Of a stretch of DNA of 6,934 nt, positions 367 through 6,886 are shown in pieces. The stretch comes from a bacterium (GTDB lineage: Bacteria; 4484-113; JALSIF01), in assembly GCA_026981635.1 (NCBI GenBank), contig JALSIF010000004.1:1-6934 (forward strand), written 5' to 3'. A model generated the notes under the pieces. The model was not told the DNA's origin, ran no database searches, and saw only the letters and a list, made by a program, of their open reading frames with translations. The translations under genes were made by a program, and so were the position numbers. The stretch's first letter is position 1; every line of letters begins with the position of its first letter.

Positions 367-1086
367 GTGGAGGGCCTGCTCTATCTGGCGGTGGGAATCC
401 TTGCCGCGGCGGGAGCCGCCACCGGCCTCACCACCCTCTCCGGCTCGCTGGGGGGTGGGCTGGTGGGCATCTCCGCGGTGGCGGGCTTCTCCTGGCAGGG
501 GCTGGTCTTCCTCCTCATCTACTTTCCCCTCCTAACCGGTGCCGCCACCGCCTTTCGCTTCGGGGAAAAGCTCTCTCGCGGGCTGGCCGACGAGGTCGGG
601 GGAAGGGACATCTTCCAGGCCCTGGCCAATGGGGGCATTCCCCTGCTGGCCGCACTGCTTACCGCCCTGGGCAGCCTGCCCACCGCCTGGGGTGCCACCC
701 TCTTTATCACCTGCCTGACCAGCTCTGCTGCCGACACGGTGAGCGCCGAGGTGGGCAAGGTGGTGGGCAGGCGCACCTACCTCATCTGGGGTCTGAGGCC
801 AGTCCCTCCAGGTACCGACGGGGGAGTATCCCTGCCCGGCACGGCGGCCGGCCTTGCCACCATCGTCATTATGGGAGCGACCGGAATGGCACTCTTCCCC
901 GGCCTGCTAGAGGCTGACGCCCTGCTTGCCGGTGCGGTGGCGGGGAATCTGGCCGACAGCCTGCTGGGTGCCCTGGCCCAGCGCAGGCTGGAAATGGTCT
1001 TCAGCCGCCGGCGGGCCAACGACCTGGTCAATCTGCTAGCAGGTATAGTTTCAGGGGCGGTGGCCCTGGCAGTGACCCTCATCTAG
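367..1086 (+). CDS. DUF92 (TMEM19/VTE6-like) integral membrane protein
   Basis: This 239-residue, very hydrophobic protein carries the DUF92 hallmarks. They are GGRDIFQALANGG (78-90), SSAADTVSAEVG (119-130), the loop PVPPGTDGGVSLPGT (145-159), NLADSLLGA (194-202) and a late NDLVN (218-222). I count six or seven likely membrane segments, near residues 2-20, 28-40, 44-58, 91-106, 155-178, 183-202 and 221-238. Length is normal for the bacterial family. A plant member, VTE6, acts as a phytyl-phosphate kinase, so an isoprenyl-phosphate kinase role is a fair guess; the bacterial substrate is unknown. The start is GTG at 367, because an in-frame TAG at 352-354 blocks any earlier one and the first membrane helix begins at once. 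No clear Shine-Dalgarno precedes it. It is head-to-head with the truncated RsmE-like gene, leaving no room for a normal promoter. The next gene on the same strand begins 70 bases after its stop. Confidence 0.82.
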   Translation: MEGLLYLAVGILAAAGAATGLTTLSGSLGGGLVGISAVAGFSWQGLVFLLIYFPLLTGAATAFRFGEKLSRGLADEVGGRDIFQALANGGIPLLAALLTALGSLPTAWGATLFITCLTSSAADTVSAEVGKVVGRRTYLIWGLRPVPPGTDGGVSLPGTAAGLATIVIMGATGMALFPGLLEADALLAGAVAGNLADSLLGALAQRRLEMVFSRRRANDLVNLLAGIVSGAVALAVTLI

Positions 1087-1156
1087 GCGACTGCCCCGGG
1101 AGGAGAGCGGACCCGTCACGGCCGAGGCGGTGTGTTAGTTGGGAAATGACCCTGCC

Positions 1157-1858
1157 ATGAGAGACTCTTCAGACTCAGAGGGTAACGGCCAAAAAATCTG
1201 GGAGCTGGTCCGCTCACTTCCCGAGCTCATTGATGAGGCCCGCTTTCGGGAGGCGGCCGACCAGGCCCGTCGCCTGCTCAGCTCTCCCCTATCTAGCCTG
1301 CGCATCCGCTGGAATGCGGCCTTTTTTCTCCTCCTCACCGGCTACCTGAGCAGCGACAGCTCCCTGGTGGGCAAGGTGCTTCCCACCCTGAAGGAGCTCT
1401 ACGAGCAGAAATCACCCAAGACCGCCACCTCCGACTACTTCCTGCTCTCCTCCCTGATGATGGCCGAGATGGTGGGGGTGGGGGAGGGGCCCGAGCGACA
1501 GGTGATCGTTGAGGAGCTGGAGAAGCAGCGCGATCCCCGCAACCTGAACCCCTTCATCCACCTGGTCACCGAGTGGGCCTATTATCGGGGAGACCTGGAG
1601 CTCATCCGTCTGGCCCGGGCCAGTCTGTCGGTCAACCGTGAGCGGGAGGCCGACGACTTTGAGTTCCTGCGCATTGAGTTTTACCTCGCCCTCATGGAGG
1701 GAAGGCCGGTCTATCAACTGTTGGACAAAATGATCGGCCTCATAAGGCTTCCCTTGCAGGCCTACGAACTGGGCCAGCGGCTAATCCCCCGTGCCCTGGA
1801 TGCTGGATGCCTCTCTGCCCAGGAGGCACGGAGGCTCAGGGCAAAGCTGTCCGACTAG
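1157..1858 (+). CDS. Hypothetical all-helical protein, possibly TPR-like
   Basis: I do not recognise this 233-residue protein. It has no signal peptide or membrane segment, so it is probably cytoplasmic. It appears helical throughout, with amphipathic stretches such as residues 12-42 (WELVRSLPELIDEARF, then REAADQARRLL) and 45-63, 75-84, 97-106, 116-124, 133-165 and 167-181. Paired helices with Ala, Leu and Tyr at small-residue positions recall TPR or similar solenoids, but no clean 34-residue consensus can be laid down. I chose ATG at 1157. TTG at 1139 is an in-frame alternative adding six residues, and TAG at 1136-1138 excludes anything earlier. GGGA at 1141-1144 is a weak ribosome site for the ATG, and GAGG at 1124-1127 a possible one for the TTG. 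It follows DUF92 by 70 bases with no terminator visible, so co-transcription is likely. Its stop overlaps that of the convergent repeat-protein gene. Confidence 0.72.
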   Translation: MRDSSDSEGNGQKIWELVRSLPELIDEARFREAADQARRLLSSPLSSLRIRWNAAFFLLLTGYLSSDSSLVGKVLPTLKELYEQKSPKTATSDYFLLSSLMMAEMVGVGEGPERQVIVEELEKQRDPRNLNPFIHLVTEWAYYRGDLELIRLARASLSVNREREADDFEFLRIEFYLALMEGRPVYQLLDKMIGLIRLPLQAYELGQRLIPRALDAGCLSAQEARRLRAKLSD

Positions 1859-3915
1859 CTGGATCCACCCGCCCCCTCCGGTTCAAGGTCAATGCCTGCC
1901 CCCAGCTCTCCCCTGGTCCAGAGGGCGTTGTTGCGCGCCTGTCCCATCCCCGGGTAGTCCTCCTCCACCAGCGGGTAGAGGTCCCTTCCCGCAAGGTCAA
2001 AGAAGAGCCCCACCCCCGGGTAACCCCGGAGGGGGGTGCCGTGGCCCAGGGCGGCGTTGGGTCTACCCGAGTAGATGTCGTCCCCGCCAAAGTCCACCAA
2101 CAGGCCCAGGGCGTTGAAGTGGCCCTGGCCCAGGCCGATCCCCTCGGTCATGTAGTGGTCGTTTCCCGCCATGTCCACCAGTATCCCCACCGCCAGGTCG
2201 TGGCCACTGCCCTGGCTCGGCCCGTAGGGAGAGGTGTAGGAGTCGTTTCCCGCTCGGTCCATAAGCATTCCCGAGGCGAGATGTATCCCTGCCCCCTGGG
2301 CATAGTGGACCGCCTCGTAGCGGTCGTTTCCCATCTCGTCTATGAGCAGGCCAAGCCCATACCAGTAGCCCGCCCCTTGGCCGTAGATGTCGGTGATGTA
2401 GACGTCGTTTCCCCCCTGGTCAATGAGCGCCCCCACCCCGCCAGCAATCCCCTGGTAGCGCCAGCCGATGGAGAAGCCCTGGGCCAGCCCCTGGAACTGG
2501 TTGTTGTAGAGGGGATAGTGGAGGAACTTCCCCCCCGCATAGTAGAGGTCGTTGCCCCACCGGTCCACCAGCACCCCCACCGCCAGCGGCCCGGCAAACC
2601 CCTCGCAGAAGCGGTAGCAGCGGTAGGTGTCCGCTGCGCCAGCCAGAGCGGTCACCTTCTCCGCCCGCTCCTCATCGCTCTCCCCGCCCACCACCTCGCC
2701 CGGGCCGGGCTCATCGCTTATGAGCAGGGCCACTCCCGCGGTTGCCGCCGCCAGGGCGTGCTCCCCATTGGCCACAAAGAGATCGCCCCGCTTCTCCCGG
2801 GAAGCAAGCTTTCGTTCCACATCCATAAGCACCGCCGTGCCAAAGAAGGCGCTTGCCAGGGTGTAGCCGATCCCCCGGTAGAGGTCATCCCCGGAGAGGT
2901 CCAAAAGCAACCCGATCCCCCCTAGTGCCCCCGCCCCCGAAAGCCGGCGGTCGGCCAGATACTGGTCATTCCCTCCCAGGTCAATGAGCACCCCGAAGGG
3001 TGCCCCGGCGGCGAAGTAGCCCCGGTAGGTGTCATCACCCCCCAGGTCCAAAATCAGGTCGGGCTGGGCAGAGAGACGCTCAATCCTCACCCGGTTGTCT
3101 CCCTTGCCCAGCAAAAGCACCGAGAGCCCGCCCTGCTTCAGATAGCCATAGCGGTACTCCCCGCTGACCTTAAGCCCCGCCGGCAGGAGTGCCCTCCTAA
3201 GCTCCAGCCCGCCGATCTCCCCCCAGCTCGCCTTCTCGGCCAGCATAAGGGAGCTTCTCAGGGCAGTCAGGCTCAGGCGGGCAAGGGAGCTCCAGTCAAA
3301 CTTCCCCACCAGCTCAACCAGCCGATCGCCGCTGAGAGAAGGAGGATTTTCCAGCGGAAGCCCGGCCACCTCCCCGCTGGGCAGCTCGGCAAGCTCCGCA
3401 GGGTCGCTCCACAGGAAGGGAAGCGCCCCATAAAGCTCCTCCACCTCGGACGGTTCCAGGCCCAGCCTGGAATCTTTCAGCTCGCGTTTGACCCGGGCCA
3501 GGTTGGACAGGGGATCAGGGGGCAGGCCCGGTCTGGGGAAAAGCTCTCCCCGCGAGACCAGCTGCCTCCTTTCCGCTCCGTCGTCCAGTCGGGTCATCTC
3601 GCCCAGGGCAAAGCTGAGCAGGAAGACCGGGTTTCGGGCGACCTCCCCAAGCTTCTTCTGGTATGAAAAAAGCGCCAGGGGGTCCTCCAGGGAGCGCTGC
3701 ACCGCCTGAAGCCTGAGCTTTCCCTCCCCCGGCCACTTGTTCCAGCCAAGATCCGCCTCGGTAAGGTTGAGCGCCGCCAGTGCCTCGGCCAGCGGTTGGG
3801 CGAGGGACCCAAACTCGGGGGGAAGTACATCCTCCTCCATCCCCCTGGCCGGGCCCATGACGAGTAGCCCGCAAAGTAGAAGAGCCAAGCTCAGTGCAAA
3901 GCGGAATGCTCCCAT
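1855..3915 (-). CDS. Secreted repeat protein with about eleven D-x-x-G-[N/D]-D-x-Y units (predicted beta-solenoid)
   Basis: The 686-residue product starts with a Sec signal peptide: FRF, a hydrophobic core at residues 7-20, and probable cleavage after PARG at 25. Residues about 30-235 are mainly helical and unrecognised. Residues 245-285 look strand-rich. From 287 to 647 the protein is made of repeats, each a short hydrophobic strand (such as GLLID) followed by D-x-x-G-[N/D]-D-x-Y. The leading Asp falls at 290, 312, 339, 451, 499, 526, 553, 581, 608 and 640. The last copy has Arg in place of N/D, and one further copy is split (365 and 429). Units 6-10 are 27, 27, 28 and 27 residues apart, with QGxG-type turns between several. 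The Asp/Asn-rich turns resemble RTX calcium-binding nonapeptides, but the period and hydrophobic strand differ. A calcium-stabilised extracellular solenoid is therefore inference. The only mature cysteines are C433 and C437. ATG at 3915 has GGAGG (3925-3929) 9 bases upstream. It lies 60 bases behind the TetR gene on the same strand. Its function is unknown to me. Confidence 0.85.
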   Translation of the reverse strand: MGAFRFALSLALLLCGLLVMGPARGMEEDVLPPEFGSLAQPLAEALAALNLTEADLGWNKWPGEGKLRLQAVQRSLEDPLALFSYQKKLGEVARNPVFLLSFALGEMTRLDDGAERRQLVSRGELFPRPGLPPDPLSNLARVKRELKDSRLGLEPSEVEELYGALPFLWSDPAELAELPSGEVAGLPLENPPSLSGDRLVELVGKFDWSSLARLSLTALRSSLMLAEKASWGEIGGLELRRALLPAGLKVSGEYRYGYLKQGGLSVLLLGKGDNRVRIERLSAQPDLILDLGGDDTYRGYFAAGAPFGVLIDLGGNDQYLADRRLSGAGALGGIGLLLDLSGDDLYRGIGYTLASAFFGTAVLMDVERKLASREKRGDLFVANGEHALAAATAGVALLISDEPGPGEVVGGESDEERAEKVTALAGAADTYRCYRFCEGFAGPLAVGVLVDRWGNDLYYAGGKFLHYPLYNNQFQGLAQGFSIGWRYQGIAGGVGALIDQGGNDVYITDIYGQGAGYWYGLGLLIDEMGNDRYEAVHYAQGAGIHLASGMLMDRAGNDSYTSPYGPSQGSGHDLAVGILVDMAGNDHYMTEGIGLGQGHFNALGLLVDFGGDDIYSGRPNAALGHGTPLRGYPGVGLFFDLAGRDLYPLVEEDYPGMGQARNNALWTRGELGAGIDLEPEGAGGSS
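1975..3057 (-). repeat. Protein-coding repeat array, period mostly 81 bp, encoding GND-Y units
   Basis: This block encodes residues 287-647 of the secreted protein. On the plus strand the repeats show as recurring GTCGTTTCC-type words (reverse complement of the GNDxY codons) followed by a Gly/Asp-rich anticodon stretch. Between about 2071 and 2421 five successive units follow at 81, 81, 84 and 81 bp. Two longer intervals, between units 5 and 6 and inside unit 4, come from insertions. The units differ in sequence between the conserved core positions, so the array is an old protein repeat rather than a recent DNA duplication. Confidence 0.8.
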
Positions 3916-3975: not shown

Positions 3976-4608
3976 CTATCCTTCCATCTTCATTCCATTC
4001 CAGCTGCAAGTTAACGCCCTCGCCAGACCCCTGACCAGATTTGAAGGACAACTTCTCGGTTCGTGGAGTAGCAGGTGCCAGATGAGCTGGGCCATGGTTC
4101 CCATCACCAGCTCAGCCGCACACAGGGGGTCCACCCCCCGCCAGCTACCCTCCCCCTCCCCAGGAGTGAGTAGGGAACTAATCAGCTCCACCAGCTTGAA
4201 GCGTAGCTCATCCAACCCCCTCACCCGGTCAGCCGAGCGGGGTGGGGCATACCAAGCATTAAACAGCACCACCAGCCGGTCGGGCATTTCAGTGACCAGA
4301 TTGGCAAAGTGGCGGATGAGGCATTCTGCCCGGTGGAGCTGGGAGGGCCCTTGCAGGTTGGCCTCCCTGAGCCGCTGGCAGAGATGGTTAAAACAGTCCA
4401 ACACTACCTCCCGGTAAAGCTCGTTCTTGTCCCCGAAGTAGTAATAGAGGGTGGGCTTGGCTATGCCTGCCTCGTGGACGATGCGCTTTACCGGGGTTGA
4501 CTGAAAGCCATAGCGGGCAAACACCCTGCAGGCCGCCTCCAGCAGGCGTCTGCGGGTCTCCCCATTGGATCGGTCTGCCTTAACCTCTCCCGACTCTACC
4601 CTCCTCAT
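3976..4608 (-). CDS. TetR/AcrR-family transcriptional repressor
   Basis: This is a 210-residue one-component regulator. Residues 18-64 form the classic TetR_N DNA-binding domain: helix ETRRRLLEAACRVFARYGF (17-35), then TPVKRIVHEAGI (38-49) and the recognition-helix and signature stretch AKPTLYYYFGDKNELY (50-65). The rest (70-200) is a helical ligand-binding and dimerisation domain, which is variable in this family, so the ligand cannot be read. Length is typical. I chose ATG at 4608 because GGGAGG lies 5 bases upstream (4614-4619). An upstream in-frame GTG at 4677 would add 23 residues with no family match and would push into the intergenic region. It is divergent from the thioredoxin-reductase gene and 60 bases upstream of the secreted repeat-protein gene, with no terminator between. 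Self-repression plus control of one or both neighbours is therefore the natural inference. Confidence 0.88.
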   Translation of the reverse strand: MRRVESGEVKADRSNGETRRRLLEAACRVFARYGFQSTPVKRIVHEAGIAKPTLYYYFGDKNELYREVVLDCFNHLCQRLREANLQGPSQLHRAECLIRHFANLVTEMPDRLVVLFNAWYAPPRSADRVRGLDELRFKLVELISSLLTPGEGEGSWRGVDPLCAAELVMGTMAQLIWHLLLHEPRSCPSNLVRGLARALTCSWNGMKMEG

Positions 4609-4613
4609 CGCAA

Positions 4614-4619
4614 CCTCCC
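4614..4619 (-). promoter_or_regulatory. Ribosome binding site of the TetR gene
   Basis: GGGAGG on the minus strand, 5 bases before the ATG at 4608. It decides in favour of this start over the GTG at 4677. Confidence 0.7.
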
Positions 4620-4733
4620 GCCTGGTTGACTCACTCCTTGATCCAATATCCGACCACCGCCCGTCAACAGGTTTCACTTATACCCCTAACAAGCGAGGGA
4701 ATTTATTAGACTGCTCAGCGGGTATAGCAAGCC

Positions 4734-4738
4734 GGAGG
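4734..4738 (+). promoter_or_regulatory. Ribosome binding site of trxB
   Basis: GGAGG sits 9 bases before ATG 4748. It supports that start over the long upstream extension to 4565, which would overlap the TetR gene, and over the second ATG at 4757. Confidence 0.7.
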
Positions 4739-4747
4739 CCAACGCGC

Positions 4748-5743
4748 ATGGCGGACATGGCAGAGTTCCCCTACGACCGTATCTGGGACATGGTGATCAT
4801 CGGTGGCGGCTGCGCCGGTCTGGGTTGCGCCATCTATGCTTCCCGTAACCAGTTTGAGACCCTGGTGCTGGAGAAGAAGTTTGTCGGCGGCACCCTCGCC
4901 CTCACCTACGAGGTGGAGAACTACCCCGGCTTCTTCAACCCTCCCATAAGCGGGATGGAGCTGACCCAGAAGTTTGAGGAACATGCCCGCTACTTCGGCA
5001 CCAAGTTCCACTACGCCGAAGCGATAAAGCTGGAAAACGACGGCCCCTACCGCCTGGTCCACACCAACGAGGGCAAGGTGCTTCGGGCGCGCACCGTGAC
5101 CATCGCCATCGGCACCGAGGTAAACAAGCTTCCCGCCAAGAACCACGACAAGTTCTATGGCAAGGGGATAAGCTATTGCGCCACCTGCGACGCCCCCTTC
5201 TTCAAGGACAAGCGGGTGATCGTGGTGGGAGGAGGCGAATCGGCCTTTGAGGAGGCCTACTACCTGACCAGGTTCGCCCGTGAGGTCTACCTGGTCCACC
5301 GACGCCAGCAGTTTCGGGCCAGCCCCATCGCGGTAGAGCGGCTTAGGTCTGCCCCCAACGTGGAGTTCATCCTGGACACGGTGGTCACCGAGATCCACGG
5401 CAACGAGCAGGTTGAGGCGGTAACCCTGAAAAACGTAAAGACCAAGGAGGAACGCCACTTCCCCACCGACGGAGTCTTTGTCTTCATCGGCCACCACCCC
5501 CGCACCGAGTGGCTGGAGGGCTACCTGGAGCTTGAGCGGGGCTACATCAAGGTGAACTACCAGCAGGAAACCAGCGTGCCCGGGGTCTATGCGGCAGGGG
5601 ACATCTGCTTGGGGGCAGAGAAGCAGGCGGTGATTTCTGCCGGCCACGGCGCCACCGCAGCCATCAAGGCGAGAAACTACGTGGACGGCATAAACTGGCC
5701 CGACCGAGTGGGCAAGGAGGCCGCCGTCCCGAGACAGGGCTGA
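4748..5743 (+). CDS. trxB: Thioredoxin reductase (NADPH, FAD-dependent)
   Basis: This 331-residue flavoenzyme passes electrons from NADPH through FAD and a redox disulfide to thioredoxin or a similar partner in the cytoplasm. The FAD-binding GxGxxG is GGGCAG (19-24), followed by VGGTLALTYEVENYPGF (46-62). The active-site disulfide is C144-A-T-C147 within SYCATCDAPFF. The NADPH site is GGGESAFEEA (161-170) with H184-R185-R186 and R190 in VHRRQQFRAS, the pattern for the NADPH phosphate. The closing FAD motif is GVYAAGD (279-285), with KQAVISAG where RQA is usual. Length is normal. Odd points: the usual Pro of GxGPAG is Cys22, and Cys27 follows five residues later. ATG 4748 is set by GGAGG 9 bases upstream. 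No thioredoxin gene lies nearby. It is divergent from a TetR gene. A related low-Mr reductase with a different disulfide partner cannot be excluded. Confidence 0.92.
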   Translation: MADMAEFPYDRIWDMVIIGGGCAGLGCAIYASRNQFETLVLEKKFVGGTLALTYEVENYPGFFNPPISGMELTQKFEEHARYFGTKFHYAEAIKLENDGPYRLVHTNEGKVLRARTVTIAIGTEVNKLPAKNHDKFYGKGISYCATCDAPFFKDKRVIVVGGGESAFEEAYYLTRFAREVYLVHRRQQFRASPIAVERLRSAPNVEFILDTVVTEIHGNEQVEAVTLKNVKTKEERHFPTDGVFVFIGHHPRTEWLEGYLELERGYIKVNYQQETSVPGVYAAGDICLGAEKQAVISAGHGATAAIKARNYVDGINWPDRVGKEAAVPRQG

Positions 5744-5881: not shown

Positions 5882-6886
5882 CTAGTTCCAGAAGTGGAAC
5901 CAGTCGGAAGAGAGGACGCTCTCCCTAAATAGCTTGCTTGCCTTGGCCTTGCGAAGGCTTTCCGGCAGGGCTAGGTAGCGCAGGGTGAGGCTTCCGATCT
6001 GCTCGGGACTGCTGGGCTGGCGGGAGATGAACTCAACCTGGCTCCCCCCCTGGTCGGTGAAGGTAATGGATGTCCTGGTCCAGGGATCAACCAGGTTGTT
6101 GTAGATGATCCAGTCTCTACCGTAGTCAAGCAGCTCCTGGGAGCTTGCCGGCACCCTGCCCTTCTCCACGATGAAGAAGTAGGCCAGGTGGGAAAGATCG
6201 CGGATTATACGGGAGGCCTTGACCGCCTTGCGGGCCTCCTCCCGGGTGGTGATGCCCAGGGAAGCCAGCTCGCTGGGGATGGACAGATCGGGACCACCGA
6301 CCTGCCCACCCATCATCTCGCTGGGCAGCATCCCCTCCGGCTGGACCACGATCTGCATGGTGCTGAGCGGGGCGTCGGTCTCGCTTCTCACCTGCCCGCT
6401 TACCACCATACGCAGGGCCTGCTTGGTCAGCTTGAGCCCCCTTACCCCGGGGTCAATGATGGCGTAGCCCATCGCCTTGACCTCCTCATAGGACTCGGGG
6501 AAACGCCCCTCGCCCATGAGGAAGGACCTGACCTGAGCGGCCACGATCTGCAGCTCCCAGTAGTGGTCGGTGGCCAGGCCCTTGCCCAGCATGCGATGGC
6601 GCCACTGCTCGTTGAGGATGATGTCGCCCCCGGTCTCCATTCCCATGATCTTCTGCCCCGGGGGCACACTCTCCTTGGTGGCCTGCTGGTTAGAAGAAGT
6701 GGTGGAAGAGGAGAGAAGGTCAGCACCCCCCTCCCCCTCCCCGTCGGTGTCAGCCTGCTGTTGGGAAGTGGCGGACTGGTTGGCATTGGCCACCGGGGAG
6801 GTCTCCTCCCCCTGTTCCACCTTGGGGCAGCCAGCAGACAGGGCCAAGATCACCAGTCCCAGGGAAAGGCTGAGCCATCTAGTCAT
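5882..6886 (-). CDS. Lipoprotein with two pseudopilin-like segments
   Basis: The 334-residue product begins with a lipoprotein signal: MTRW, a hydrophobic core at 5-16, and lipobox LSAGC with lipidated Cys20. It should be anchored in a membrane on the outer side of the inner membrane. Residues 22-75 form a low-complexity Gln/Ser/Gly/Glu linker. Two segments then look alike. Residues 112-180 have a helix (LQIVAAQVRSFLMGEGRFP) then ESYEEVKAMGYAIIDPG. Residues 226-288 have a helix (RIIRDLSHLAYFFIVEKGR) then VPASSQELLDYG, then NNLVDPW at 263-269 and strands. The helix, the GR[FV]P turn, the S.(E/Q)E(V/L) helix and DPW recall the periplasmic part of GspG/PulG-type pseudopilins, though no N-methylation motif is present. 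A role in a secretion or pilus-like envelope assembly is inference only. ATG 6886 has GGAGG (6896-6900) 9 bases upstream. It overlaps the preceding gene's end by 8 bases and has its own terminator. Confidence 0.78.
   Translation of the reverse strand: MTRWLSLSLGLVILALSAGCPKVEQGEETSPVANANQSATSQQQADTDGEGEGGADLLSSSTTSSNQQATKESVPPGQKIMGMETGGDIILNEQWRHRMLGKGLATDHYWELQIVAAQVRSFLMGEGRFPESYEEVKAMGYAIIDPGVRGLKLTKQALRMVVSGQVRSETDAPLSTMQIVVQPEGMLPSEMMGGQVGGPDLSIPSELASLGITTREEARKAVKASRIIRDLSHLAYFFIVEKGRVPASSQELLDYGRDWIIYNNLVDPWTRTSITFTDQGGSQVEFISRQPSSPEQIGSLTLRYLALPESLRKAKASKLFRESVLSSDWFHFWN

What the first reader, a model, noticed from the sequence alone, without database searches (positions are those of the whole stretch)
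1975..3057. A 27-residue D-x-x-G-[N/D]-D-x-Y repeat family in a secreted protein
Nine exact and one near-exact copies of the core occur, plus one split copy, with strands of the type G-x-L-x-D before each and QGxG turns between several. The period of 27 residues does not match RTX (9), LRR (20-29, with a different consensus) or TPR/Sel1 patterns. The Asp/Asn clusters are placed as if to bind a cation at every turn. I do not recall a named function for such proteins.
Basis: partly seen in the sequence, partly recalled or inferred. Interest (0 to 1): 0.72.

Follow-up and report, generated by a model that had tools for sequence, protein, structure and literature searches.

The report
Unnamed secreted beta-helix protein family
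This gene encodes a secreted protein that is predicted to coil into a rigid 12-turn helix and carries an unchanging cluster of reactive residues on six of its turns; it belongs to a large, apparently undescribed family found across many little-studied bacterial phyla, and may be an enzyme or receptor for charged sugars.

Summary
The repeat is real. It lies in a 686-aa predicted secreted protein (minus strand, 3915-1855): nine exact and one near-exact D-x-x-G-[N/D]-D-x-Y cores, plus two copies split by insertions. No Pfam, NCBIfam, PHROGs or PADLOC family and no PDB sequence matches it. It is not a variable-number repeat: relatives in over ten bacterial phyla keep the same 12 coils in nearly the same spacing. 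AlphaFold2 (pLDDT 86.8-89.8, pTM 0.90) gives a helical N-terminal domain plus a beta-solenoid. VIA-align places it with right-handed parallel beta-helices (NosD, HMW1, polygalacturonases, PL6 lyases; Z 12-16), but Foldseek gives no significant hit. The D/G/D/Y ladder recurs in every coil and looks structural; cation binding is untested. Coils 6-11 also carry residues invariant across phyla at one register: R486, Y517-W518, H545, H572-D573, N601, R630. This looks like a ligand or active site, most economically one acting on an anionic glycan, as in beta-helix uronate lyases and epimerases (inference). Many relatives fuse a C-terminal HEAT domain, or encode it as the next gene.

The parts
1855..3915 (-). 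Gene for the 686-aa beta-helix protein (P0001)
   Evidence: ORF list and translation; homologues over most of its length in >10 phyla
3841..3915 (-). Sec-type signal peptide, aa 1-25 (inferred from sequence: MGAFRFALSLALLLCGLLVMGPARG)
   Evidence: Sequence; most relatives also start with a hydrophobic leader, 4 of 74 with a lipobox-like motif
3226..3819 (-). Helical N-terminal domain, aa 33-230, conserved in relatives (L..GF.K.W....F.L..V...L..PL), no Pfam family
   Evidence: AlphaFold2 helices; A3 conservation and Pfam scan
1876..3201 (-). 12-coil beta-solenoid, aa 239-680
   Evidence: AlphaFold2 pLDDT 86.8 / 89.8, pTM 0.90; right-handed beta-helix matches
2776..2823 (-). Split copy, coil 4: D365 separated from GDLF (aa 377-380) by an insertion
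   Evidence: Alignment with relatives
2623..2715 (-). Split copy, coil 5: D401 separated from AADTY (aa 427-431) by an insertion
   Evidence: Alignment with relatives
2440..2541 (-). Conserved long coil 6 (aa 459-492, AGGKY.H.PL...SLSQGF.IG.R), 47-48 residues from coil 6 D to coil 7 D in most relatives
2458..2460 (-). Invariant R486, coil 6
   Evidence: 66/66 in A3, 24/24 in A1; lost in L023 and L128
2362..2367 (-). Y517-W518, coil 7, -9/-8 register
   Evidence: Y 66/66, W 65/66; register table
2281..2283 (-). H545, coil 8, -8 register
   Evidence: 66/66 and 24/24
2197..2202 (-). H572-D573, coil 9, -9/-8 register
   Evidence: H 66/66, D 66/66; in A1 H 20/24, D 24/24
2113..2115 (-). N601, coil 10, -7 register
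   Evidence: 65/66 in A3, 20/24 in A1
2026..2028 (-). R630, coil 11, -10 register
   Evidence: 65/65 in A3, 16/24 in A1

Best explanation
A secreted or periplasmic protein made of a helical N-terminal domain and a 12-coil right-handed parallel beta-helix. In every coil the D-x-x-G-[N/D]-D-x-Y turn repeats at the same register and forms a stacked Asp/Gly/Tyr ladder that caps one corner of the helix; this is structural and may be charge-neutralised by cations. On coils 6-11 a second set of residues that is not part of the repeat (R486, Y517-W518, H545, H572-D573, N601, R630) falls at neighbouring registers of successive coils and would lie a few angstroms apart on one face, forming a binding or catalytic site. 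The likeliest job is recognition or chemistry on an anionic polymer, probably a uronate-containing or sulphated glycan, with Tyr/His as proton donor and acceptor and Arg as charge neutraliser. Shown by computation: family, fixed coil number, predicted solenoid, invariant cluster. Inferred: that the cluster is one site, that it is catalytic, and the substrate class.
For: High-confidence models, pLDDT 86.8 and 89.8, pTM 0.90. VIA-align Z 12.7-16.2 over 267-322 residues with NosD, HMW1, polygalacturonases, a PL6 lyase and chondroitinase B, all right-handed parallel beta-helices. Coil spacing conserved over phyla. Cluster invariant in 65-66 of 66 relatives and mostly kept in distant paralogues, while the same registers in coils 2-5 vary. 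Two members that keep the solenoid have lost the cluster: L023 almost entirely, L128 the Arg and both His, as expected of a separable function. Some members carry extracellular accessory modules: PKD, Big_7, a dockerin-like match, BamB-like propeller. Beta-helix alginate epimerase/lyases use a Tyr/His/Asp set with Arg nearby (PMC8824271; PMC7385640), and PMC9410043 describes a beta-helix lyase outside known families and the His/Tyr mechanism.
Against: No Foldseek match at E<=0.001, and Z-values of long repeats are inflated. No conserved carbohydrate or uptake gene next to it across phyla. Coordinates could not be measured here, so the spatial closeness of the site residues is inferred from register. 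Residues of this kind could equally bind a ligand without catalysis.
Confidence: 0.45

Rival explanations
1. A non-catalytic surface or periplasmic scaffold or adhesin. The solenoid is a spacer or binding platform, and the conserved coil 6-11 residues are a ligand-recognition or protein-protein (for example HEAT) docking site.
For: Beta-helix adhesins and secretion domains (HMW1, HxuA) are among the best fold matches. A HEAT domain is fused or adjacent in many relatives. Several members per genome in the window's phylum, 2-8 matches each.
Against: An exactly conserved R/Y/W/H/H-D/N/R set over more than ten phyla is more than a generic scaffold needs; adhesins usually vary at the surface (general knowledge). 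The window protein and other short forms have no fused HEAT domain yet keep the cluster.
Confidence: 0.35
2. A cation ladder: one Ca2+ at each D-x-x-G-[N/D]-D turn, so the protein folds or is held rigid by extracellular calcium, as in an RTX beta-roll with one binding turn per coil.
For: D0, G3 and D5 are near-invariant in the coils with an intact core. The solenoid is acidic in all 64 members, net -10 to -47. xxGNDxY resembles the second half of the RTX unit GGxG(x/D)DxU (PMC2174480).
Against: No RTX Pfam match, 27 rather than 9 residues per unit. Parallel beta-helices also use side-chain ladders without metal (Asn ladder, PMC6879350). AlphaFold2 folds it without metal. This does not explain the coil-specific cluster. 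It can be true together with the best explanation.
Confidence: 0.4
3. A NosD-like extracytoplasmic protein that handles a metal or cofactor.
For: NosD is the top VIA-align match, Z 16.2, rmsd 4.7 over 272 residues.
Against: 6% identity; other right-handed beta-helices score nearly as high; no ABC or nos-like genes in the window; the cluster is not rich in Cys or Met.
Confidence: 0.05

Closest known systems
Right-handed parallel beta-helix uronate enzymes (PL6 alginate lyase/chondroitinase B, GH28 polygalacturonase, AlgE/AlgG C5-epimerases)
   Same: Predicted fold (PL6 6qps Z 13.6, chondroitinase B 1dbg Z 12.7, polygalacturonase 7b8b Z 13.8); about 12 coils with an invariant side-chain ladder (PL6 Asn ladder); a Tyr/His/Asp plus Arg residue set like AlgE7
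   Different: No sequence match to any such family; 6-11% identity; ladder is D/G/D/Y at a turn; equivalence of active sites not shown
RTX nonapeptide beta-roll proteins
   Same: Gly/Asp-rich turn xxGNDxY resembles half of GGxG(x/D)DxU; secreted; acidic
   Different: 27-residue unit, one such turn per coil, no RTX profile match, 12 fixed coils
Two-partner-secretion beta-helix domains (HMW1, HxuA, EtpA)
   Same: Right-handed beta-helix with similar VIA-align Z (HMW1 15.5, HxuA 9-13)
   Different: No shared sequence signature seen; the conserved cluster has no counterpart found here
NosD
   Same: Best structural match, Z 16.2
   Different: No sequence similarity, different gene context
Knotted Solenoid fold of Brevundimonas (PMC13123833)
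   Same: Recently reported solenoid family with conserved residues at coil starts
   Different: About 14 kDa proteins from Brevundimonas whose nearest unknotted relatives are pentapeptide repeats; unrelated in size and taxa

Membership tests
RTX (hemolysin-type calcium-binding repeats) | Tandem nonapeptides GGxGxDxUx / RTX profile match | tested here: not met
   Unit is 27 residues; no RTX family among Pfam matches of 66 and 64 members; only one or two weak Peptidase_M10_C matches, E 0.015-0.029
RTX (hemolysin-type calcium-binding repeats) | Calcium-dependent folding | not testable with these tools
   Needs purified protein
Leucine-rich repeat | LxxLxLxxNxL consensus / LRR profile match | tested here: not met
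   Consensus is GxLxDxxG[ND]DxY...QGxG; no LRR Pfam hit
TPR / Sel1 | Helix-pair repeat with Pfam match | tested here: not met
   Repeat region is strands; no TPR or Sel1 hit
Right-handed parallel beta-helix (architecture) | Parallel strands stacked in coils, structural match to solved members | tested here: met
   On AlphaFold2 models only; Z 12-16 with right-handed members, rmsd 3.9-5.1; left-handed members align only at rmsd about 12
Right-handed parallel beta-helix (architecture) | Sequence match to Pfam Beta_helix models | tested here: not met
   None in the solenoid of 66 members; one relative has a separate Beta_helix domain (L129)
Beta-helix polysaccharide lyase / C5-epimerase | Sequence match to a PL, GH or epimerase family | tested here: not met
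   PDB profile search found nothing relevant
Beta-helix polysaccharide lyase / C5-epimerase | Catalytic Tyr/His with Arg/Asp in a groove | tested here: inconclusive
   The residue types are invariant at neighbouring registers, but coordinates could not be compared
Beta-helix polysaccharide lyase / C5-epimerase | Enzymatic activity | not testable with these tools
   Needs assays

The most novel reading that the evidence does not exclude
A new, broadly distributed class of extracellular beta-helix enzyme in little-cultured bacterial phyla, with its own turn signature and an active site (R486, Y517/W518, H545, H572/D573, N601, R630) built on consecutive coils, often working with a HEAT-repeat domain.
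Probability: 0.4. Interest if true: 0.78.

Novelty: new variant of a known kind. Interest (0 to 1): 0.56.

Why it matters
A family with at least 459 encoding stretches in one scan, present in all 10 held genomes of the window's own phylum, yet without a Pfam or NCBIfam model, is a real gap in annotation. If the cluster is catalytic it would add a new enzyme family to the extracellular chemistry of Cloacimonadota, WOR-3, Planctomycetota, Eisenbacteria and other phyla known mainly from metagenomes. Its conserved residues make the hypothesis directly testable by point mutation.

Tried and rejected
Pfam, NCBIfam, PHROGs, PADLOC and PDB sequence searches gave no relevant family. Mobile-element origin: no relatives in viral contigs, plasmids or phages. 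Foldseek against PDB and BFVD gave nothing at E<=0.001, so fold placement rests on VIA-align. Left-handed beta-helix (LpxD): Z about 11 but rmsd about 12, rejected. Conserved operon partner: only lineage-specific neighbours, except the HEAT gene. Knotted Solenoid paper: unrelated. Literature searches for the motif or family found nothing. A first alignment was too diverse to seed a scan.

Full report
Observation. The finding lies in a minus-strand ORF, 3915..1855, 686 aa. Nine exact D..G[ND]D.Y cores and one near copy occur against 0.0025 expected in shuffles. Alignment with relatives shows that the 112-residue gap holds two further coils whose cores are split by insertions, D365/GDLF and D401/AADTY, giving 12 coils. 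GC by codon position (0.71, 0.46, 0.80) resembles that of neighbouring genes, and a 372-aa plus-strand ORF over the same DNA is a shadow.

Family. No model of Pfam, NCBIfam, PHROGs or PADLOC and no PDB sequence matches. The window's genome has a second copy on contig C48, cut by the contig end. All 10 held genomes of the window's phylum carry it, with 2-8 matches each. A profile finds it in 73 of 385 genomes drawn across Bacteria, mostly at E<1e-70 or not at all, so the family is well delimited; that sample is weighted to the window's kin and is not a census. A scan of genome contigs gave 459 encoding stretches. The best 80 come from Planctomycetota, WOR-3, Cloacimonadota, Latescibacterota, Fermentibacteria, Coatesbacteria, Eisenbacteria, Zixibacteria, Verrucomicrobia, Acidobacteria, Bacteroidota and others, nearly all metagenome-assembled. 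None was found in viral contigs, plasmids or phages. A tree clusters sequences by phylum far more than shuffled labels do, which suggests mainly vertical inheritance. It separates two deep subfamilies, one with the window protein and one with the C48 paralogue, and puts the window protein on a long branch of its own.

Architecture. Motif spacings recur over phyla: about 25, 27, 26, 26, 27, 47, 27, 27, 27-28, 26-27, 32. This is a fixed 12-coil fold, not an expanding tandem repeat. The N-terminal helical domain is conserved (L69, P79, L80). Many relatives continue with about 290 aa of HEAT repeats. In six of 13 short forms (L040, L050, L087, L101, L110, L113) the next gene is a homologue of that domain, a fused/split pattern that suggests a functional link. 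The window protein has neither a fused HEAT domain nor such a neighbour. Other relatives carry a BamB-like propeller, PKD, Big_7, a weak dockerin match or PDZ.

Structure. AlphaFold2 with 66 rows gives pLDDT 86.8, pTM 0.90; the solenoid alone with 64 rows gives 89.8 and 0.90. Foldseek against PDB has nothing significant. VIA-align on the solenoid gives NosD Z 16.2, HMW1 15.5, polygalacturonase 13.8, PL6 lyase 13.6, chondroitinase B 12.7, at rmsd 3.9-5.1 over 272-322 residues. Left-handed helices align only at rmsd about 12. [quoted passage not shown] Coordinates are not released by the tool, so side-chain distances were not measured.

Two layers of conservation. The first repeats in each coil with an intact core: D0, G3, D5, Y7, then a QG corner and G/L positions before the next D. 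The second is coil-specific. Counting back from the next coil's D, coil 7 has Y-W, coil 8 I-H, coil 9 H-D and coil 10 T-N at registers -9 to -7, with R at -13 of coil 6 and at -10 of coil 11; coils 2-5 vary there. In 66 relatives R486, Y517, H545, H572 and D573 are invariant and W518, N601 and R630 are 98-100%. In the more distant set R486, Y517, H545 and D573 remain 24/24. Of 23 distant members, L023 and L128 keep the solenoid but have lost key residues. Residues at one register of successive coils are expected about 4.8 A apart (established beta-helix geometry), so this is best read as one site.

Mechanism. The residue set (Tyr, His, Asp, Arg) recalls beta-helix uronate enzymes: AlgE7 uses H154 as base and Y149 as acid with D152, D178 and R195 nearby (PMC8824271), and polysaccharide lyases divide into His/Tyr and metal-assisted mechanisms (PMC9410043). 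This is analogy, not homology, and supports only a hypothesis: recognition of, or beta-elimination/epimerisation chemistry on, an anionic glycan. A binding-only role is a close rival. The Asp ladder may bind cations (acidic domain) or may be a metal-free cap like the PL6 Asn ladder (PMC6879350).

Verdict. The more interesting feature is the invariant coil 6-11 cluster and the fixed architecture across phyla. I rate it a new variant of a known kind: a new family on a known architecture.

Noticed in passing
L040, L050, L087, L101, L110, L113 downstream genes; C-termini of L034, L035, L041, L073, L111 and others: A HEAT-repeat domain (about 290 aa) is either fused to the C-terminus of the beta-helix or encoded by the adjacent downstream gene.
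   Followed up: partly
L023 and L128: Family members that keep the solenoid but have lost key site residues (R486, H545, H572, and more in L023): possible inactive versions.
   Followed up: partly
G000:C48 (L004 1495-2628, minus): A second family member of the other deep subfamily in the same genome, truncated by the contig end, followed on the same strand by a 371-aa gene that reads like a WYL-type regulator (no family search run on it).
   Followed up: partly
window 367-1086 (+): DUF92 integral membrane protein (PF01940, E 3e-37).
   Followed up: no
window 1139-1858 (+): 239-aa protein of no known family, convergent with the repeat gene; their 3' ends overlap by 4 bases.
   Followed up: no
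window 3976-4677 (-) and 4565-5743 (+): TetR-type regulator divergent from a thioredoxin-disulfide reductase (TIGR01292); the reductase ORF overlaps the TetR 5' end, and its true start is probably about 210 bases further in.
   Followed up: no
window 5882-6886 (-): 334-aa predicted lipoprotein (LSAGC lipobox by eye) with no Pfam or NCBIfam match.
   Followed up: no
L122, L127, L128, L129, L132: Family members with extra N-terminal modules: BamB/PQQ propeller, Big_7 with a weak dockerin match, PKD, Beta_helix, PDZ.
   Followed up: no
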